48,093 bases of DNA, from contig JABEVK010000053.1 of NCBI GenBank assembly GCA_013044245.1, positions 1 to 48,093 on the forward strand, written 5' to 3'. Below are positions 153 to 9,883 of the stretch, in pieces (the stretch's first letter is position 1; the number at the start of each line of letters is the position of its first letter). This DNA is from Spirochaetales bacterium. Its GTDB lineage: Bacteria > Spirochaetota > Spirochaetia > JABEVK01. A program made the position numbers and the translations under genes. A model generated the notes under the pieces. That model had not been told where the DNA came from. It saw only the letters and a program-made list of their open reading frames with translations, and did no database searches.

Positions 153-1301
153 ATGGCCAAGCTTCCGGCTACCATTTTTATGGTAGCAATTTTTGCTTTT
201 ACTTTGACCGCTTGTACGATTACCTTAACAAACACAGTTACATCGAGCTCTATATCGGGCACTGTTGTCGACGCTGATTCCTACACGGCTGCCGGTCTAG
301 CGTATGTTAACGTTACGTTAACGTCGATTACTGACCCCACCTATACAGCAACGGCGACCACCGATTCCTCAGGCAATTATACCTTTATTGGCCTTGACTC
401 GAGTAAATCGCCCTATACCCTAAGCTCGTCACTCAGTGGTTACTTTATTCCTACCGTTCGGGTCAATCAAAATGGGTACAATATTGTGATGGATGATATC
501 CCCGCGGTTCAACTTAGTACATCAAACATTGGGGGGCTGTCGTTTTTGACGGTCTACAATAATCAAGCGGCACATATTGATAGCTACCTTTCGTTCCCTG
601 ATTCTGATCAATCATCGACAGAACCAAGCTTTACCACCCCCTATGCCGACCCTCTGAGCGATTTACGGGCCGAGGTCTACTACGCCTCACCAGTATTTCT
701 TTCTGGTACGAATTCTTCCTCTGCCACGGCTTTTTTAAACACAACAGTCAACTCCAATAATACCTCGGGCGCCAGTAGTTTGACTCTACGGTCTATTCCT
801 TTTACTTACGGGAGCTACCCAGGGAATACCACAAACTACCCGTTGACGATGAGCAGTCCTGACGTCAACGGATTGTCTTCCGCGTTTAAGAGTTCATTTG
901 GTAGCGATGCGGTTTACTTTCGCTACATGGGAGCAGCCGAGTTGTACCTTAACGCGACTTTGGGAACTTTAACCTCGTCCCCCGGGGCGACAACGAACCC
1001 CAATTTAACCGTTTATTGCGTTCAAACGACCGGTACAAGCTCTAATCCTAGCGCGACTCTGCTAGGGTCTTTCACTCTGCCATCATCCTATTCACTTAAG
1101 AGTGTGAGCCTGATTCGGGTAAATATGTTCCTGTATTATGACTCAACGCAAGGCACAACAGGCGCCGCTTTGCAACTGGTCCCTGATGAAAAGGTTATCT
1201 CGCAAGGCCCCGCGAGTGGGGTTGGCTCCCTGCCCTTCAAAGCCTTGGCGGGGTCTAGTTCCCCTATCTTGGGCGTGATTCTTCCTACCAGGAGGTCCTA
1301 A
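153..1301 (+). CDS. Lipoprotein with carboxypeptidase-regulatory-like domain
   Basis: The protein has 382 residues. A hydrophobic signal peptide ends in the lipobox LTAC (Cys21), so it should be lipidated and anchored to a membrane facing the periplasm or the outside. Residues ~33-115 read as a CarboxypepD_reg/Big-like beta-sandwich (SGTVVDA...GLAYVNVTLTS...TTDSSGNYTFIGL), a fold common in surface and transport-associated proteins. The rest is rich in Ser, Thr, Asn, Tyr and Gly and shows no catalytic motif. The start is ATG 153 behind a strong SD, AGGGAGGG (141-148). The PEGA-domain gene follows 2 bases after the stop, and its SD lies inside this coding region, so the two are co-transcribed. 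A role in the cell envelope is an inference; the exact function is unknown. Confidence 0.75.
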   Translation: MAKLPATIFMVAIFAFTLTACTITLTNTVTSSSISGTVVDADSYTAAGLAYVNVTLTSITDPTYTATATTDSSGNYTFIGLDSSKSPYTLSSSLSGYFIPTVRVNQNGYNIVMDDIPAVQLSTSNIGGLSFLTVYNNQAAHIDSYLSFPDSDQSSTEPSFTTPYADPLSDLRAEVYYASPVFLSGTNSSSATAFLNTTVNSNNTSGASSLTLRSIPFTYGSYPGNTTNYPLTMSSPDVNGLSSAFKSSFGSDAVYFRYMGAAELYLNATLGTLTSSPGATTNPNLTVYCVQTTGTSSNPSATLLGSFTLPSSYSLKSVSLIRVNMFLYYDSTQGTTGAALQLVPDEKVISQGPASGVGSLPFKALAGSSSPILGVILPTRRS

Positions 1302-1303
1302 AA

Positions 1304-2077
1304 GTGAAAAACGTATTAAAAGGATTGTTTGCCGGATTTTTATGTTTGTTGGGCAGTTCGTTGTTCGCCCAAGTCGGAATTATCATCCCTGGTCAACGGG
1401 CAACCTCAAACGGACCCTTTGTTGTGCGGTTTACTAGCGACATCGCAGGCGCTCCTGTTTTTATCAATGGTCAATACACCAACACCATGAACTTTACAAC
1501 GCGGCTGCCAGGGGGTAGATACGATATTCGTGTAACAGCCCCCGGGCACCCCGACTGGCATCAGCAAGTCATAATTCAGAATGACACGACGATCAATGCG
1601 GATTTTGGCAACACTTCAAGCCAACCTCCTGTGCCTCCAGCGAATTATACCGTTAGACTATCAGCCAACATCGAGGGTGTTCACATTTTTGTCGATGGAC
1701 GTCCTGTCGGGCGTGAGATGCAGCTTCCTCCTGGTCGGTACCGATTCCGCGTGGAGAGACCAGGCTATCGGCCGTGGGAACGCAGTATGGATATTGATGG
1801 TGACAGGGACTTACAAGCTAGTCTTGAGCCCGACCCGGCGGTTCTCATGCTAGAAATGGAACTTAATGGGCGCGTTGAATGGCGTATTGATGGGCGAGTT
1901 CATTGGACAGAACGGCACAATCCGCAGATAGAGATTGCTCCCGGTCCCCATGAGGTAGTAGTAACAACCGGGGCGTTTCGCACGCGACTACACGTCGATT
2001 TAGCCCCAGGGCGAGTCTACGTCCTCAAACCGGGACTTACCCTTGAAGAGTCTCGGCGTGATCACAGAGACAACTGA
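1304..2077 (+). CDS. Secreted PEGA-domain protein
   Basis: The protein has 257 residues. It begins with a Sec signal peptide (probable cut after SSLFA, residue ~22). Two PEGA-type repeats follow: residues ~40-100 (GAPVFINGQYTN...LPGGRYDIRVTAPGH) and ~118-175 (GVHIFVDGRPVG...LPPGRYRFRVERPGY). A third, weaker copy lies at ~180-245 (VEWRIDGR...IAPGPHEVVV). PEGA domains are surface/S-layer-like beta modules, named for a conserved Pro-Glu-Gly-Ala motif, and no enzyme activity is expected. The start is GTG 1304, set by SD AGGAGG at 1290-1295, which lies in the end of the upstream lipoprotein gene. It is convergent with the oxidoreductase gene, with only 12 bases between stops. Confidence 0.8.
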   Translation: MKNVLKGLFAGFLCLLGSSLFAQVGIIIPGQRATSNGPFVVRFTSDIAGAPVFINGQYTNTMNFTTRLPGGRYDIRVTAPGHPDWHQQVIIQNDTTINADFGNTSSQPPVPPANYTVRLSANIEGVHIFVDGRPVGREMQLPPGRYRFRVERPGYRPWERSMDIDGDRDLQASLEPDPAVLMLEMELNGRVEWRIDGRVHWTERHNPQIEIAPGPHEVVVTTGAFRTRLHVDLAPGRVYVLKPGLTLEESRRDHRDN

Positions 2078-3170: not shown

Positions 3171-4097
3171 ATGGCATCTCATAACGCTGAGGTCTCGTCG
3201 TTAGAGGGCGTTGCTCTGGTCGAAGAGGCTACCAAGATCATTGAAAATTCACCGATAAGGCCCCGTGACTCTCACGGCCGCCCAGGCGGTTTGGTGGAGT
3301 TTCCAGCAAGCCTTCGTCCCATCATCATCGGCGACCTTCATACCAACCTCGACAATTTGAAAAAAATTCTGCACCACGAAACAAACTATGAAGAGGTAAC
3401 CGCCAACAAAGCCGCGTATATTGTCGTTGGTGACGCCGTTCACGACGACCAGACCGGTCGGATGAAAGATATGACCAGCTCTTTAGTGATGCTGGAAGAA
3501 ATCTTTCGCTTGATCATTGCTTTCCCCGAAAACTTTTTGTACCTCCGGGGTAACCATGACACTTTTGATGCCCGACTGGTTAAATCGGGTATCGCCCAAG
3601 GGAAAGAATTTCGCTTAAAATTGCTTGAAGCCCGGTCAGCCGAGTATGTCGAAGCTGTCGAAAAGTTTTTCGACGCTCTGCCTTATTTCATCATTGGTGA
3701 TGGCTTTGTTATTACCCATGCCGGACCCCCTCGAGGCGGATGCACGAAACAACAATTGATCGATGTCCTAGACCGCCCCGATTTGATGCAACAACTAACC
3801 TGGAACCGAATCAATGAGTTTCATGGAACCCCGAGTTCCCGCGAATATGGCGAACGCGATATACGGGCTATGCTAGAATGCCTCTCGTTGCCCGAGTTTA
3901 CTCATTTTATTGTGGGTCATAACCTCATCAACGACGGGAACAAAACCGGTTGCTGGATGAATGTCATTGGTGTCAAGAATCATCATATTTTGTATTCAGG
4001 GACAGCAAGCCAGGCCCCTTACCTAACGTTCCAAAATGGTGAACTGGTGCTAAAAACTGCCCAGGTCAAAACTCCTGAGGTGTATTACTATGGATGA
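3171..4097 (+). CDS. PPP-family-like metallophosphatase
   Basis: The protein has 308 residues. Calcineurin-like metallophosphoesterase motifs occur in the usual order: GDLH (54-57), GDAVHDD (87-93, in place of GDxxDRG), RGNHD (126-130), ITHAG (His183) and VGH (248-250). These ligands bind a two-metal centre that hydrolyses phosphomonoesters. The LRGNHD form and overall length resemble the PPP Ser/Thr phosphatase branch and bacterial relatives such as ApaH/PrpE more than nucleases, but substrate is not determined. There is no signal peptide, so it is cytoplasmic. The stop overlaps the start of the next gene by 8 bases, and that gene codes for a kinase-like protein, which suggests an opposed phosphatase-kinase pair (inference). 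It lacks an SD; see the promoter at 3136-3163. Confidence 0.85.
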   Translation: MASHNAEVSSLEGVALVEEATKIIENSPIRPRDSHGRPGGLVEFPASLRPIIIGDLHTNLDNLKKILHHETNYEEVTANKAAYIVVGDAVHDDQTGRMKDMTSSLVMLEEIFRLIIAFPENFLYLRGNHDTFDARLVKSGIAQGKEFRLKLLEARSAEYVEAVEKFFDALPYFIIGDGFVITHAGPPRGGCTKQQLIDVLDRPDLMQQLTWNRINEFHGTPSSREYGERDIRAMLECLSLPEFTHFIVGHNLINDGNKTGCWMNVIGVKNHHILYSGTASQAPYLTFQNGELVLKTAQVKTPEVYYYG

Positions 4098-5004
4098 TCG
4101 CGAACAATTGGCTAATGAGCTCCACGATCCTGATCTTGTCGACTATTTTTACTTGAACCTGACAACACCCTCGGTTTTGAGCCAACTAAAACAGCTTGAA
4201 TTAAAGCTTACTCCTAAGAGTGATGAGGCGCCCTTTAACGCCATCGTCAAAGGCTACCAAGCGGCGACCGATCAGCAAGGGCACCCTTGGATTGTCAAAC
4301 CCGTTACCTGTGATGAAGAGGTCCTTTACCACAGGGTCTGCATGCTGGTTTACCTGTTAGATCATCAAACTGGCACCTTATCAGCCCCCCTCGTCCTTAC
4401 CAAAATCGCGGGTAAGCCTTTTCGCGCCACCAAAGTGATTAGGAAAGGCATACAAATAAGCTCGTATAACTACCTCAAAAAACCCTTCATTGATTATATT
4501 CGCCAAGACTTGGTTAACCGTTGGATCTACTTTGATGAAGACCGAAACCCCAACAACTATTTGGTGATCCAAAACTCCCTGCGAAAGGATTTTTTGGTAG
4601 CCATCGACTTCGACAAAGCCGATTTAACCACAACAAAATTAAAGATCACCGGTGATCCCGACAAGTTTGGATGGTTTCGTACCGAGAAAACGCGCTTTTT
4701 GACCCTTCTGCGACCGGAACATTTTCAAAATCAGCCTTTAGAACTCTTTGACGCACGGCTAGAAGCTTTTAACAAGCTTTCGGTTGATCAGCTTAAGGAA
4801 TGGGCTTGGTCGTTGCTCGAAGGCTGGGCACCACCAGAGCTAGCCGAAACGTTGGCCCATAACCTCCGCGAACGCATACAGTATGTCAACGAATACTTTC
4901 GGACTTGGTTCAAACCAGCCTCCGAAACACCTTCAACAACCCACGATGATGATTATTCTGCCTTTGGGAAGAGTTTTTTGCAAATGTATGGAGATAAGCG
5001 CTAA
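4090..5004 (+). CDS. PIK/HipA-like protein kinase homologue
   Basis: The protein has 304 residues. I see a compact kinase-like fold. WIVKP supplies a candidate ATP-binding Lys70 on a beta strand. DEEVLYHR (75-82) could be the following acidic helix. A catalytic loop DRNPNN (Asp151, Asn156) follows WIYFDE, and AIDFD (Asp173) sits at the DFG position. The order D-R-x-x-x-N then I-D-F is that of PI3/PI4-kinase-like and HipA-like kinases rather than classic Ser/Thr kinases. All three key residues are present, so it may be active; the C-terminal ~110 residues are helical. It starts inside the phosphatase gene (8-base overlap), which implies translational coupling. The target is unknown; the paralogues or the pseudokinase downstream are natural candidates (inference). 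Confidence 0.6.
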   Translation: MDDREQLANELHDPDLVDYFYLNLTTPSVLSQLKQLELKLTPKSDEAPFNAIVKGYQAATDQQGHPWIVKPVTCDEEVLYHRVCMLVYLLDHQTGTLSAPLVLTKIAGKPFRATKVIRKGIQISSYNYLKKPFIDYIRQDLVNRWIYFDEDRNPNNYLVIQNSLRKDFLVAIDFDKADLTTTKLKITGDPDKFGWFRTEKTRFLTLLRPEHFQNQPLELFDARLEAFNKLSVDQLKEWAWSLLEGWAPPELAETLAHNLRERIQYVNEYFRTWFKPASETPSTTHDDDYSAFGKSFLQMYGDKR

Positions 5005-5090
5005 GTCGACGCAGATTAGTCTGTAAAACAAACCTCAATATTGAACGGCCGGCCTCCGATAATCGCTATGAAAAGAAGTCAAGGTTGAAT

Positions 5091-5795
5091 ATGAGTTTTC
5101 AAGAAGACCGGCGAATCATTATGGATGGCGTATATTACATACGCGAGGCTCTGTTTGCCTGCACCGACCCGATTCAGGTTGAAAGTGCAGTAAGTTTTGC
5201 CCGTTTCTTGAATTGGTCGGGAATTAACCGAGAGACCTACCCGTTGTTTCTCCGTCTAATACAAACCAACAACCCCTGGGTCGTTGATGCCCTTATTGCC
5301 AACCGCGAGCCTCGGCTGTTGTTTTCGACAATAAAACCCAATACCGAGTTGATCGATGCCGCATTTGCCAATTTATTTTCGTTTCATCCCGACGAACTGT
5401 ACGAAAAAGCGTTGATGGCCTTGCTGGGCATTATTGAAAATGCCTATTTTGACGCCGATGACGGTTACAAGTGGCATGCCATCGAAATCATGGACATCAA
5501 TGCCTTGGGAAAGTTCTTAATCAAAGACTCACCGCAGGACCACCCTCTCAATAAGTTGGTACTGCATATTTTAGACCGTTTGACGCATCTGGGCGAAGCT
5601 TTAAAAGACCATCAAAAGAACCTCTTAGCCAAACACGCCTTTAATGTTCGTTATGCGTATTTTGATTCAACCAAAGCCCTCAACGATGCCATTCCCAAGC
5701 CAATTTTGACGAGAAAATTTGGTATTGAGCCTGTTCAACCTACCACAGAGTTCGCCGAGCTAACCAAAGCTCGACAAAAAGAACAACAAGACTAG
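5091..5795 (+). CDS. Tandem paralogue 1, unknown family
   Basis: The protein has 234 residues from ATG 5091 (AAGG at 5081-5084); a TTG at 5085 is possible. It is the most diverged of four consecutive relatives. The shared pattern is still clear: FARFLNWSGIN, TYPLFLRL, NPWVVDAL, IKPN in place of IQPN, LGIIENAY, DGYKWHA, INALGKFL, ILDRL, NVRYAYFDSTK and IP near the end. It looks like an all-helical soluble protein without signal peptide, membrane segment or recognisable catalytic motif. I do not recognise the family. It lies 86 bases after the kinase gene and 118 bases before paralogue 2, which has its own promoter. Confidence 0.8.
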   Translation: MSFQEDRRIIMDGVYYIREALFACTDPIQVESAVSFARFLNWSGINRETYPLFLRLIQTNNPWVVDALIANREPRLLFSTIKPNTELIDAAFANLFSFHPDELYEKALMALLGIIENAYFDADDGYKWHAIEIMDINALGKFLIKDSPQDHPLNKLVLHILDRLTHLGEALKDHQKNLLAKHAFNVRYAYFDSTKALNDAIPKPILTRKFGIEPVQPTTEFAELTKARQKEQQD

Positions 5796-5855
5796 CTAAC
5801 AACAAAACCACTACACCAAAACTCAATACGTTTTAAAGATTTTGATGATTTTTTT

Positions 5856-5884
5856 TTGACATTTGGCATACCACATCCTAAACT
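5856..5884 (+). promoter_or_regulatory. Strong internal promoter before paralogue 2
   Basis: TTGACA (5856-5861), exactly 17 bases, then TAAACT (5879-5884, 4 of 6). A run of seven T at 5851-5857 overlaps the front of the -35. Predicted start of transcription is near 5891, giving a ~23-base leader with SD AAGGAGG (5902-5908). This is one of the best sigma70-type promoters in the window. Confidence 0.7.
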
Positions 5885-5913
5885 ATTAATAAATCCGCTT
5901 GAAGGAGGATACG

Positions 5914-6612
5914 ATGGACAAACAAAGTGAGAAGCTCATTGACAAGACTTGGTCCAAAGAGACCATCATGCAAGTTGAGCTCGGCATCGTTCAAAACATG
6001 TTCGGGAGCAGAACCGAAGAAGCAGTCGAAGGGTCGATCAGCTTCGCAAGGTTCCTTAGCCTTTCTGGTTTGAACAACGACACTTACCCGCTGTTCTTGA
6101 AACTGCTGGAAGTGGAAAACCACTGGGTCATTGATACTATGGTCGGTAAGAAGGATCCATTCCTTCTTCTCAGTCCTATACAGCCCAACAACTACTTGAT
6201 TTTCAACGCCTTCAAACTGCTGACCAAATGGCATCCCGGTGGTATCTACCCTGTCACGTTGTCCATTGTTCTCGGCATTCTTCAGGCGGCTTATGCATCC
6301 CCCAAAGATGGCTACAAGATCTACGAAGTTTCGATTAATGATGTCAACAACCTCGGTAAACATTTGAACAAAGAAACCGGCCAAGAGGAGCCTAACAACC
6401 GCACTATCCTTGATATTGTTGACCGTTTAGGAGCCCTTGCTGGTACGTCTACAGACCCTGAAAAGGAACAGATGGCTCGTCAGGCCAACAACATCCGAAC
6501 CTACTTCTTTGACAAACGTAAGAAGATGGAAGACATCATTCCCCAGGTTCTGTTGGTCAAGTCGGACTATATCGCCAAGGAAACCGCCCCGCGCATGGTT
6601 TTCGTAAACTAA
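5914..6612 (+). CDS. Tandem paralogue 2, unknown family
   Basis: The protein has 232 residues from ATG 5914, five bases after a consensus SD AAGGAGG. It carries the fullest set of family signatures: SFARFLSLSGLN (43-54), TYPLFLKLL, WVIDT (71-75), KDP (80-82), IQPN (89-92), YPVTLSIVLGILQAAY, DGYKIY (132-137), NDVNNLGKHL (142-151), ILDIVDRL, NNIRTYFFD (192-200) and IIPQVLL (208-214). It is predicted all-helical and cytosolic, with no catalytic motif. The strong promoter and SD suggest high expression, so a structural or scaffold role is possible (inference). Function is unknown. Confidence 0.85.
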   Translation: MDKQSEKLIDKTWSKETIMQVELGIVQNMFGSRTEEAVEGSISFARFLSLSGLNNDTYPLFLKLLEVENHWVIDTMVGKKDPFLLLSPIQPNNYLIFNAFKLLTKWHPGGIYPVTLSIVLGILQAAYASPKDGYKIYEVSINDVNNLGKHLNKETGQEEPNNRTILDIVDRLGALAGTSTDPEKEQMARQANNIRTYFFDKRKKMEDIIPQVLLVKSDYIAKETAPRMVFVN

Positions 6613-6633
6613 TTCAGCGAAAAGAGGGTCATC

Positions 6634-7350
6634 ATGGAAGAACTTTTTGAAAAGAAAGAAGAGTGGAGCGAACAAGATGTCATGGGCATTGAATATGGAA
6701 TGCTCAAAGGCATCATGGGGACACGGACGATCGAAGCCGTTGAGTCTGCCATAACTTATGCCAGTTACCTGAACTTTACGGGAATCAACAATGGGAACTA
6801 CCCCGTGTTCCTGAAAGTCTTAACGGTGCGCAATCATCATGTGATTGACGCCCTTTTGGGAACCCGTGACCCGTTTTTATTCATGAGCTCTATTCAGCCC
6901 AACTATTTTATCGTTGCTACTTGCTTTAGTATTTTGGCGAAATACCGCAAGGGCGAAGTCTACTCCAAGACCTTGGGAATTATCCTCGGTGTGTTCCAAG
7001 CCACCTACAACTCCCCCCTGGACGGTTACAAAATTTATCCGCCGTCGGTAGCTGACCTCAACAGTCTTGGTAAACATCTCAATGAGGACAAGGGTCAGGA
7101 TGACCTCTTGAACCGCAGTATCCTCGATATTCTTGACAAACTGAGCTCGCTGGAAGGTCAGAACCAGAACGAAGATATGGAAGACCTCGCTGTTCACGCC
7201 CATAACATCCGCAATAACTTCTTTGACTCGACCAAACGTTTGGTTGATATCATTCCTGAAGTTCTCTTGCGGCTGGAACCGAATATGGACGAAGATGTTC
7301 AACCTCGCAATCGTGTTGCTTTGGCTGAAGCCGAGGGAACTCAAGCCTGA
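6634..7350 (+). CDS. Tandem paralogue 3, unknown family
   Basis: The protein has 238 residues. ATG 6634 follows AGAGGG, 21 bases after paralogue 2. It shares the family signatures: YASYLNFTGIN, NYPVFLKVL, HHVIDALLGTRDPFLF, IQPN, YSKTLGIILGVFQATY, DGYKIYPPS, LNSLGKHL, NRSILDILDKL, HNIRNNFFDSTK and DIIPEVLL. The C-terminus is acidic and unlike the others. It is followed by a strong rho-independent terminator (7372-7398), so transcripts from the 5856 promoter would largely stop here and yield a two-gene message. Function is unknown; no signal peptide or membrane segment. Confidence 0.85.
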   Translation: MEELFEKKEEWSEQDVMGIEYGMLKGIMGTRTIEAVESAITYASYLNFTGINNGNYPVFLKVLTVRNHHVIDALLGTRDPFLFMSSIQPNYFIVATCFSILAKYRKGEVYSKTLGIILGVFQATYNSPLDGYKIYPPSVADLNSLGKHLNEDKGQDDLLNRSILDILDKLSSLEGQNQNEDMEDLAVHAHNIRNNFFDSTKRLVDIIPEVLLRLEPNMDEDVQPRNRVALAEAEGTQA

Positions 7351-7371
7351 GGTAGATCACAGGGGAGTGAT

Positions 7372-7398
7372 GACGCCGCTTAGGCGGCGTCTCTTTTT
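7372..7398 (+). terminator. Rho-independent terminator between paralogues 3 and 4
   Basis: A perfect 8-bp GC-rich stem GACGCCGC (7372-7379) / GCGGCGTC (7384-7391) with loop TTAG is followed by TCTTTTT. It lies inside a run of same-strand, related genes, so it would work as an attenuator that lowers expression of paralogue 4 and the pseudokinase gene. Confidence 0.85.
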
Positions 7399-7419
7399 GC
7401 CGAACAGGAGGCGTGAACC

Positions 7420-8121
7420 ATGGCAGAGCAACAGGCTCCCGTTTGGGATCCTCGCGAAATCGACGAGCTTCAGCTTGTGTACATGAAAGATCTGATCCGC
7501 TGTAAAGACGGCTTCAGTGTTTTTACATCCCTGGCGTATGCTCATTATCTTGTCAACAATCCGGGACTAACGTCTGACAATTATCCGGTATTCTTTCAGC
7601 TGATTGAAGCGGCCAACCGCTGGGTCATCGATACTCTCACTGGGGGCAAAGATCCTGCCCGTTTTCTAGGCAATATTCAACCCAACGGATGGATGCTCAA
7701 AGAATCCTTTCGATTCTTAACCGTTTGGAAAAGCGGCGGCGTCTACCCGATAGCACTTCTGATGATCCTGGGGCTTTTGTACCAGTCCTATTCCAATCCT
7801 GAAGAAGGATATAGGATGTACACTCTGAATGTTAACGACGTGAACAATTTGGGAAAGCATTTGGATAAGTCCAAAGATCAAATGGATCCGCAGAATAGAA
7901 TTATCCTGACTATCCTTGATCGCATTGCTAGCCTGATTGAACCACAACGACCTGCCCCCACCGAGGCCGTTCGCGATGTAGCCCTTCAAGCTAACAATAT
8001 CCGAGGCAAGTTCTTGGATATGACCAAACAACTGGCGGAAGCGATACCCGATGTACTTTTGGTAAAAGAGGATTTTACGGCAACGGAGATTCCTCCAAAA
8101 GTTCCTCCGTTGAATATCTAA
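7420..8121 (+). CDS. Tandem paralogue 4, unknown family
   Basis: The protein has 233 residues. ATG 7420 has SD AGGAGG at 7406-7411. Signatures shared with its siblings: YAHYLVNNPGL, NYPVFFQLI, RWVIDTLTGGKDP, IQPN, YPIALLMILGLLYQSY, EGYRMY in place of DGYKIY, VNDVNNLGKHL, NRIILTILDRI, NNIRGKFLDMTK and AIPDVLL. It differs at the N-terminus, where the acidic helix seen in paralogues 2 and 3 is replaced. It lies downstream of the terminator at 7372-7398 and 25 bases before the pseudokinase gene, which makes a second transcriptional pair likely. Function is unknown. Confidence 0.85.
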   Translation: MAEQQAPVWDPREIDELQLVYMKDLIRCKDGFSVFTSLAYAHYLVNNPGLTSDNYPVFFQLIEAANRWVIDTLTGGKDPARFLGNIQPNGWMLKESFRFLTVWKSGGVYPIALLMILGLLYQSYSNPEEGYRMYTLNVNDVNNLGKHLDKSKDQMDPQNRIILTILDRIASLIEPQRPAPTEAVRDVALQANNIRGKFLDMTKQLAEAIPDVLLVKEDFTATEIPPKVPPLNI

Positions 8122-8146
8122 TCCGGCAAGCATTGGAGCTTTCTTC

Positions 8147-9883
8147 GTGGAGACAAGCCCTGAACTGAAAAAGCAGGATGTTATAAATAACTGCTACATC
8201 CTTCAAAAGCGGGTTATGGAGGATATCTTTGCCGAGTATTGGGAGGCGACTGCCATCTTCTCGGCACAGACTTTCCTCCTTCGTTTTTTGAAAATGGAGG
8301 CTTTTTCTCCTGATCTTATCAATAGTTTTTATTCGCAGACTATTCAGGCAGTATCTTTACGCCATTCGGCACTTCTACCGACCCTCGAGGTTGATCGCCA
8401 CCAAGGACGTGTTTATGTGGCTAGCGACGGCTCTGGATATGTTTCTTTACCCCATCTTCTTCAAGAGGGTCTAAAGCTCTCTTTATTGCACGTTGCTACT
8501 ATTGGGCTTCTGCTTATTCAAGCCCTGGAGCTCTGGTCAGAAAAAGTGGGGCCATATAGCCGTCTCGACCCCTCCGCTTTGCACGGAAGAAAGAATGGTA
8601 CAAGACTGAAAGAACTTCGCCTTTTGAGCCCAGGTTATGGAACGCTGATAAGCTCAACGCAAGCTAGCGAAACCCCTATAATTCCTGAATCAGTTCGCCA
8701 ATGGGGGGCTATCATTGTTTACCTCCTTACCTTCGAGACTCAGCCCAACGAGCTCAACCTAGTGTGGATGACTACCACACTGCGGCAACGGAGGGTTCCA
8801 GAGGCATTGATAGCCATCTTGTTGAAGACACAACGTCACTCACCTCAACTACGGTACCAAACGTGGGATGAACTCCGTTCTGATTGGGAACCTATTGCTA
8901 AAGAACTTCAATGGTATACAACCTCTGAAGGAAGCCTAGCTGACCCTTTGTTGGTAGGTGCGGGCCTAAAGACCACGTTTATTCCCGAAAAAATGGTTGA
9001 AGGGATTTCTGCTGACGATGCCCAGCGGCTCTATCCGCAGCTTCTCGACAAGAGCGAAGAGACGCTACAGAATCTAAGCCCTTTTATTCATGATAATTTG
9101 ACCTTTTCCACCGGTGATCTTTTAGATTTTGCCCTGCGTCAGGATCTATTTCATCCTGGAAACGAAACTTTAGCCTTATGGCAAAAACCTAAATCTGCAA
9201 ATAAAACCACAACCGACGCTTTACCCCGTTCTAGGCCCTCGCCTCAGGCCTTACACGCCCAGACCGTACAATCTGACGAACCGCAAATGGCTGCCTATGA
9301 AGCGGGGTCACCAACCGCACCTTCAAACGCCGACAAAATCCCCTGGTATTCTGAAAGCGGTTCAGTATCGTTAGTTTTACAACGCCTTACCAATGATTGG
9401 CGAAAAGCCGCCGTGCAAACAGGCTCGTTGAGGTTTGTCGAAGAGCCGCATCATTCCAGTCCCATCGGCCCGTTTTTGCTTAGCCTTAAAACTAAGGCCC
9501 TCTATCTTGAACTTCCTGACCAGGTCGTTCAGGGAACCTTAGAGCACTTTCAAGCATTTTTAGATACAGGCTGGGAACGTCAAGCTTCCGATCGGTCCCC
9601 ATCGTATGTTCGCCGTCTACGACAAAGGTGGAAAGCTCACCGAAAAAGTGAAATTCATGAAGCCAGTCTTGTTAACCAGTTGACGGCCTTGGGAACAAAA
9701 GCAACCCCTCTGGTTGTGGTACTGCACCATGCACAAAAACTCTCTCGGGTTGTCCATGACGTACTTTTAGCCATGAGGAGACGGGAACAAGGCTCGGCGT
9801 TCTGCATTTTTGCTTTTTTTGAGCCCGAAGAAACCCCGGAATGGCACGCCTTGCATCAACTTCCTTTGAAATTGCCCCAATAA
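8147..9883 (+). CDS. Degenerate Ser/Thr kinase with STAND-ATPase-like tail
   Basis: The protein has 578 residues, starting at GTG 8147 (GGAG at 8135-8138). Residues ~12-250 follow a Ser/Thr-kinase domain from end to end: an N-lobe like INNCYILQKR, a hinge YVSLPHLLQEG, a catalytic-loop equivalent YSRLDPSALH (137-146), a C-lobe PESVRQWGAIIVYLLTF, and a final helix RYQTWDELRSDW (236-247). Catalytic residues are gone: the HRD Asp aligns with Arg139, the loop Lys with Asp141, the metal-binding Asn with Ala144, and the DFG Asp with Ser161. The usual VAIK Lys also seems replaced. Residues ~519-575 (TPLVVVLHHAQKLS, then FAFFEPEETPEWHAL) resemble the Walker B and sensor part of the STAND ATPase that follows the kinase in large signalling proteins; the Walker B acids are His527-His528 here. 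I read it as a pseudokinase scaffold (inference). Confidence 0.7.
   Translation: METSPELKKQDVINNCYILQKRVMEDIFAEYWEATAIFSAQTFLLRFLKMEAFSPDLINSFYSQTIQAVSLRHSALLPTLEVDRHQGRVYVASDGSGYVSLPHLLQEGLKLSLLHVATIGLLLIQALELWSEKVGPYSRLDPSALHGRKNGTRLKELRLLSPGYGTLISSTQASETPIIPESVRQWGAIIVYLLTFETQPNELNLVWMTTTLRQRRVPEALIAILLKTQRHSPQLRYQTWDELRSDWEPIAKELQWYTTSEGSLADPLLVGAGLKTTFIPEKMVEGISADDAQRLYPQLLDKSEETLQNLSPFIHDNLTFSTGDLLDFALRQDLFHPGNETLALWQKPKSANKTTTDALPRSRPSPQALHAQTVQSDEPQMAAYEAGSPTAPSNADKIPWYSESGSVSLVLQRLTNDWRKAAVQTGSLRFVEEPHHSSPIGPFLLSLKTKALYLELPDQVVQGTLEHFQAFLDTGWERQASDRSPSYVRRLRQRWKAHRKSEIHEASLVNQLTALGTKATPLVVVLHHAQKLSRVVHDVLLAMRRREQGSAFCIFAFFEPEETPEWHALHQLPLKLPQ

What the first reader, a model, noticed from the sequence alone, without database searches (positions are those of the whole stretch)
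3171..9883. Undescribed cluster: phosphatase, PIK-like kinase, four paralogues and a pseudokinase
Seen: an 8-base-overlapping PPP-like phosphatase and a kinase-like protein with intact Lys70, Asp151, Asn156 and Asp173, followed by four tandem relatives of an unrecognised helical family and by a kinase-fold protein without catalytic residues. Known: opposed kinase-phosphatase pairs usually act on a shared target. Inference: the pair sets the phosphorylation state of the paralogues or of the pseudokinase, and the paralogues form a hetero-oligomer organised by it. I know of no described system with this composition, though without a search I cannot rule one out.
Basis: partly seen in the sequence, partly recalled or inferred. 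Interest (0 to 1): 0.82.

Follow-up and report, generated by a model that had tools for sequence, protein, structure and literature searches.

The report
Phospho-regulated helical protein complex, undescribed
A block of seven neighbouring spirochaete genes encodes a set of related helical proteins of an unrecognised family together with a kinase, a phosphatase and a dead kinase, and the same set recurs across distantly related bacteria, so it looks like a real but undescribed protein assembly that cells switch by phosphorylation.

Summary
In detail: all seven ORFs are at the stated coordinates, and phos and kin overlap by 8 bases. The cluster is real. The same seven families lie together in 26 largely non-redundant spirochaete loci, and the kinase occurs in 16 of 393 Spirochaetota genomes, all among the 19 that hold the paralogues.

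The paralogues match nothing in Pfam, NCBIfam, PHROGs, PADLOC or PDB. A tree gives five ancient classes (p1-p5). p2 and p3 form an inseparable core, also found in Acidobacteria, Desulfobacterota and SAR324. AlphaFold places window p2 and p3 as a heterodimer (pTM 0.83). Terminator-like hairpins separate p3 from p4 in 14 of 44 loci (0.7 expected) and never p2 from p3.

The core carries one of two partner sets. With p4 come the kinase and PPP phosphatase (6 of 6 non-spirochaete genomes). Without p4 there are neither (8 of 8), but a FrzS-like pseudo-receiver coiled coil instead. The kinase fold is closest to CtkA/PI4KII/HipA. The last gene is a pseudokinase.

Best reading: an abundant p2-p3 scaffold, membrane-tethered in many hosts, whose p4/p1 subunits are switched by the kinase-phosphatase pair. 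A spatial-organisation role is plausible but unproven.

The parts
3171..4097 (+). PPP-type metallophosphatase (phos)
   Evidence: PF00149 E 4.5e-11; PPP motifs invariant in 18 relatives; profile nearest PP5/BSU1 in PDB, E 2e-7
4090..5004 (+). PIK/HipA/CtkA-like kinase (kin), overlaps phos by 8 bases
   Evidence: AF2 pLDDT 88.6; Foldseek best CtkA 3akj E 7e-4; D151, N156, D173 invariant in 37, K70 in 35 of 37; no Pfam family
5085..5795 (+). paralogue p1 (ATG alternative at 5091)
   Evidence: own clade, Spirochaetota only; ORF
5856..5884 (+). promoter-like site TTGACA-17-TAAACT in front of p2 (best of the region, but the number of such sites does not exceed shuffles)
5914..6612 (+). paralogue p2, core; Shine-Dalgarno-like AAGGAGGA upstream
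   Evidence: about 55-61% identical orthologues in Acidobacteria, Desulfobacterota and SAR324; heterodimer model with p3
6634..7350 (+). paralogue p3, core, directly after p2
7372..7401 (+). terminator-like hairpin GACGCCGC-TTAG-GCGGCGTC + TCTTTTTGCC between p3 and p4
   Evidence: similar hairpins at this place in 14 of 44 loci vs 0.7 expected, 0 of 54 between p2 and p3
7420..8121 (+). paralogue p4, the class that tracks kinase and phosphatase
   Evidence: clade of 45 with SAR324 members, support 0.93; co-occurrence
8147..9883 (+). pseudokinase (psk), N-terminal kinase fold without catalytic residues plus variable C-terminal part
   Evidence: orthologues hit PF00069/PF07714, 6 of 12; alignment

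Best explanation
The locus encodes a multi-subunit assembly. p2 and p3 form an abundant heteromeric scaffold (predicted, not shown). p4 and p1 are less abundant subunits joined to it. The PIK-like kinase phosphorylates, and the PPP phosphatase dephosphorylates, p4 (or p1), which switches assembly state or partner binding. The pseudokinase is a clade-specific adaptor. In many hosts the assembly is tethered to the inner face of the membrane by single-pass proteins (a TM-zinc-ribbon protein, and in other spirochaetes a second TM protein). In hosts without the kinase module the same scaffold is paired with a FrzS-like pseudo-receiver coiled coil, which points to a role in spatial organisation such as a polar or membrane-associated complex. 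Shown: co-occurrence, orthology, conservation. Predicted: p2-p3 heterodimer, kinase fold. Inferred: substrate, abundance, membrane tethering, function.
For: Kinase found only where the paralogues are: 16 of 19 vs 0 of 374 genomes. Of the three exceptions, two are 81-83% complete assemblies and the third (G051) has only fused p2-p3. Non-spirochaetes: 6 genomes with four paralogues have kinase and phosphatase, even when the kinase is unlinked; 8 with p2-p3 alone have neither. p4 is the extra class shared by kinase-bearing spirochaetes and SAR324. p2-p3 placement pTM 0.83 with low confidence mainly in the linker. p2/p3 keep 70-77% identity in most spirochaete families where the kinase keeps about 40-46%. 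Hairpin between p3 and p4. FrzS is the best PDB match of the alternative partner, E 1.3e-15, and that partner lies beside p2-p3 in 6 of 8 loci. The TM-zinc-ribbon protein flanks several clusters and is found genome-wide only in paralogue-bearing genomes, including (weakly, E 4e-5, at a contig end) the window's own.
Against: No substrate is identified and no Ser/Thr specific to p4 is strongly conserved. The genomes are not independent samples: the six four-paralogue genomes may be one or two clades. The heterodimer was modelled as a read-through tandem with a Gly at the p2 stop, and no PAE is available. No fold match gives a function. The TM partners were found in only some genomes. FrzS-like and receiver proteins are much commoner than p2-p3 (background).
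Confidence: 0.5

Rival explanations
1. The pair acts on a target outside the cluster (a general signalling pair), and the paralogues are sensors or scaffolds that control the enzymes rather than substrates.
For: In SAR324 genomes the kinase gene lies away from the paralogues, beside a conserved family whose sequence looks DHH-like and a protein with MtxA domains. PIK-like kinases such as HipA act on unrelated targets (general knowledge).
Against: Kinase occurrence is confined to paralogue-bearing genomes and linkage is kept in nearly all spirochaete loci.
Confidence: 0.25
2. A motility-linked apparatus (flagellar or gliding control).
For: FrzS-like partner in two-paralogue genomes; an MglA-like Ras/Arf GTPase about 8 kb from p2-p3 in L070.
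Against: FliG_C is present equally in spirochaetes with and without the system, and was not found in five genomes that have p2-p3.
Confidence: 0.15
3. A defence or conflict system: patchy, multi-phylum, kinase-based, as some anti-phage kinases are.
For: Patchy distribution (5% of Spirochaetota genomes); weak PD-T4-6 matches of the pseudokinase at E 1e-3.
Against: No other PADLOC match; p2/p3 evolve very slowly; no nuclease, toxin or effector; absent from phages, plasmids and viral contigs.
Confidence: 0.08
4. A HipA-type toxin-antitoxin module with the phosphatase as antidote.
For: Kinase fold close to HipA; overlap of the two genes.
Against: No HipB-like gene; the kinase sits with structural paralogues; in SAR324 the kinase is mostly unlinked from the phosphatase.
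Confidence: 0.05

Closest known systems
CtkA / HipA / PI4KII-like kinases (PIK-like fold)
   Same: Predicted fold and catalytic Lys, Asp, Asn, Asp
   Different: No Pfam or PDB sequence match; no HipB; partnered with a PPP phosphatase and structural paralogues
PPP Ser/Thr phosphatases (PP5, BSU1; phage NinI type)
   Same: Metal-site motifs; profile match E 2e-7, phrog_246 E 4e-11
   Different: Distinct group that travels with the p-family and the PIK-like kinase
FrzS of Myxococcus xanthus
   Same: Receiver without the phospho-acceptor Asp plus long coiled coil in the alternative partner of p2-p3 (PMC1974792)
   Different: Not in the window cluster; no p2-p3 relatives were seen mentioned beside FrzS in the passages read
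Bacterial kinase-phosphatase signalling modules (Hanks kinase + PP2C)
   Same: A kinase and a phosphatase gene side by side, here with a dead kinase as well
   Different: The active kinase is PIK-like, the phosphatase is PPP, and the core is an unrecognised helical family

Membership tests
PPP Ser/Thr phosphatase | GDxH, GDxxH/D, GNH, HxG and GH metal/phosphate motifs | tested here: met
   conserved in 18 relatives; PF00149
PIK/HipA/CtkA kinase | PIK-like kinase fold | tested here: met
   AF2 pLDDT 88.6, Foldseek CtkA E 7e-4, TM 0.45-0.49; moderate similarity only
PIK/HipA/CtkA kinase | catalytic Lys, Asp, Asn and metal Asp | tested here: met
   K70, D151, N156, D173
PIK/HipA/CtkA kinase | sequence match to a curated family (e.g. 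HipA models) | tested here: not met
   no Pfam/NCBIfam family
PIK/HipA/CtkA kinase | protein kinase activity | not testable with these tools
   needs an enzyme assay
HipBA toxin-antitoxin | adjacent HipB-like DNA-binding antitoxin | tested here: not met
   no such gene in the window cluster
Hanks-type pseudokinase (psk) | protein kinase fold with VAIK/HRD/DFG lost | tested here: met
   PF00069 in 6 of 12 orthologues, none in the window copy; residues replaced by eye on the alignment
FrzS (partner in two-paralogue genomes) | pseudo-receiver lacking Asp plus coiled coil | tested here: met
FrzS (partner in two-paralogue genomes) | pole-to-pole localisation | not testable with these tools
   needs imaging
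Anti-phage defence system | match to described defence genes or mobile context | tested here: not met
   PADLOC only marginal; no phage, plasmid or viral copy

The most novel reading that the evidence does not exclude
The p-family is a new bacterial structural scaffold for spatial organisation, built on an obligate p2-p3 heterodimer and steered in different phyla by two alternative regulators: a PIK-like kinase/PPP phosphatase switch acting through p4, or a FrzS-like pseudo-receiver coiled coil.
Probability: 0.3. Interest if true: 0.9.

Novelty: categorically new. Interest (0 to 1): 0.74.

Why it matters
A protein pair as conserved as p2-p3 (p2 is about 55-61% identical between Spirochaetota and Acidobacteria or Desulfobacterota), with no match in the family and structure libraries searched here and kept together across at least four phyla, suggests an unstudied cellular structure. 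Its dedicated kinase-phosphatase switch would be an unusual bacterial case in which a PIK-like kinase acts on a structural assembly rather than as a toxin, and the two alternative regulatory modules make the question testable by genetics and biochemistry.

Tried and rejected
Pfam, NCBIfam, PHROGs and PADLOC scans of the paralogues gave nothing above noise. Viral, plasmid and phage collections hold no relatives. PDB and viral fold searches with the p2-p3 model gave only helical-repeat noise. A first p2+p3 alignment on the L059 fusion put p3 rows on the p2 half and was dropped for natural tandem rows. A flagellar link was tested with FliG_C and does not discriminate. A LysM domain at the C-terminus of the second TM protein looked likely by eye but no Pfam LysM match was found, so it is not claimed. 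A conserved p4-specific phosphosite was looked for and not found. The window's flanking genes are not conserved near other copies. Literature searches found no described system of this make-up, though the library is open-access only.

Full report
Observation. The phosphatase has a Pfam metallophosphatase match, and the PPP motifs are conserved in 18 relatives; the nearest solved relatives are PP5 and BSU1. The kinase matches no curated family, but its AlphaFold model is good and its best structural matches include CtkA, PI4KII-alpha and HipA, with the four named residues conserved. The last protein is a pseudokinase: six of twelve orthologues hit the Pfam kinase models, the window copy does not, and the aligned catalytic positions are replaced. 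The p-family has no match in Pfam, NCBIfam, PHROGs or PADLOC above noise, none in PDB by sequence, and its two-subunit model none by fold.

Is it a real unit? Among 60 relatives the kinase was found in 13 genomes (own genome included), and in all 12 others fetched the phosphatase and several paralogues lie with it. A scan of the GTDB species genomes gave 53 loci, and HMMs show all seven families together in 26 largely non-redundant loci. In 393 Spirochaetota genomes the paralogues occur in 19 and the kinase in 16, all inside the 19 (Fisher 8.5e-26, not corrected for relatedness). Of the three without kinase, two are 81-83% complete and fragmented, and one (G051) has only a fused p2-p3. The window's own flanking genes are not near other copies. 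The arrangement differs between clades: in many it is p1-phos-kin-psk facing p4-p3-p2 on the other strand, so linkage is kept through rearrangement.

Structure of the family. A tree of 212 domains gives five classes: p2 and p3 in all phyla, p4 in Spirochaetota and SAR324, p1 in Spirochaetota only, and p5 in SAR324 and basal spirochaetes (absent from the window). Support for p3 is only 0.78. p2 and p3 keep 70-77% identity between most spirochaete families in which the kinase keeps about 40-46%. In 27 other loci p2 and p3 are adjacent and in one frame or, in L059, fused, which gave a naturally paired alignment; the window tandem, with the p2 stop read as Gly, was modelled with pLDDT 85 and pTM 0.83, the low-confidence stretches being mainly the linker. 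This predicts a heterodimer; it is not proof. Between p3 and p4 there is a terminator-like hairpin in 14 of 44 loci, including the window (7372-7401), against 0.7 expected from shuffles, and none in 54 p2-p3 gaps, which are short, median 21 bases. I infer that p2-p3 are made in excess over p4.

Two partner sets. Outside the spirochaetes the split is clean: six genomes with four paralogues (SAR324 and relatives) have both kinase and phosphatase, and eight with only p2-p3 (Acidobacteria, Desulfobacterota, one Proteobacteria MAG) have neither. In six of those eight the next large gene is a pseudo-receiver with a long coiled coil, in all six lacking the phospho-acceptor Asp, whose best PDB match is the FrzS receiver; FrzS itself lacks that Asp and moves between cell poles (PMC1974792). 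The other two have related large proteins elsewhere. The four-paralogue genomes show only background receiver matches. So the enzymes go with p4 (and p1/p5), not with p2-p3 as such.

Membrane link. Two membrane proteins recur near the cluster: a 540-680 aa protein with one TM helix (TM positions), absent from the window's genome and its close clade, and a small TM protein with a QTINVNVG motif and a C-terminal zinc ribbon. The latter is found in only 3 of 393 genomes at E 1e-4, all with the paralogues, including the window's own genome, where a truncated copy lies at the end of another contig.

Mechanism. My best reading is a p2-p3 scaffold, tethered to the membrane in many hosts, with p4/p1 as switch subunits set by kinase and phosphatase, and the pseudokinase as a clade-specific adaptor. 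Co-occurrence and orthology are shown; the complex is predicted; substrate, abundance, tethering and cellular role are inferred. A flagellar role is not supported, and defence or toxin-antitoxin readings fit poorly.

Novelty. No library searched names the p-family or the combination, and no paper found describes it. The enzymes belong to known folds; the scaffold and the system do not match any described kind. I therefore rate it categorically new, with the caveat that its function is unknown.

Limits. Counts are not corrected for phylogeny, the named genomes are metagenome-assembled, no PAE was available, the literature library is open-access only, and no substrate site could be predicted.

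Noticed in passing
L070:1999-2604 (-) and 811-1989 (-): A Ras/Arf-like (MglA-like) GTPase and a DUF4388-cNMP-binding protein lie about 8 kb from p2-p3 in a Desulfobacterales MAG; a possible polarity link.
   Followed up: partly
L130-L134 around the kinase: In SAR324 and relatives the kinase sits beside a conserved 306-aa family with DHH-like motifs (no Pfam match) and, in five genomes, a related family on its other side whose tested member has MtxA (magnetotaxis protein) domains.
   Followed up: partly
L059:10001-11329: p2 and p3 are fused in one 442-aa ORF (also G051); this genome has lost p1, p4 and the kinase but keeps the large TM protein. Could be real or an assembly collapse.
   Followed up: partly
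window:10050-11810 (-): MptE-like/Maf N-terminal protein, a flagellin-glycosylation type gene, next to the cluster but not conserved there.
   Followed up: no
L029:16810-19678: A second PPP phosphatase of the same subfamily adjoins a Hanks-type kinase gene, suggesting the phosphatase family also pairs with ordinary kinases.
   Followed up: no
L039 (DYPP01000020.1): Record named Treponema denticola has an isolate name suggesting a sulfur-cave MAG, and its cluster groups with uncultured Spirochaetales; the name looks wrong.
   Followed up: no
psk C-terminus, window about 9350-9830: The C-terminal part of the window-clade pseudokinase has a weak AAA_16-like match (E 4.4e-4 in one orthologue; 0.05 in the window copy), absent in the other clade.
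   Followed up: no
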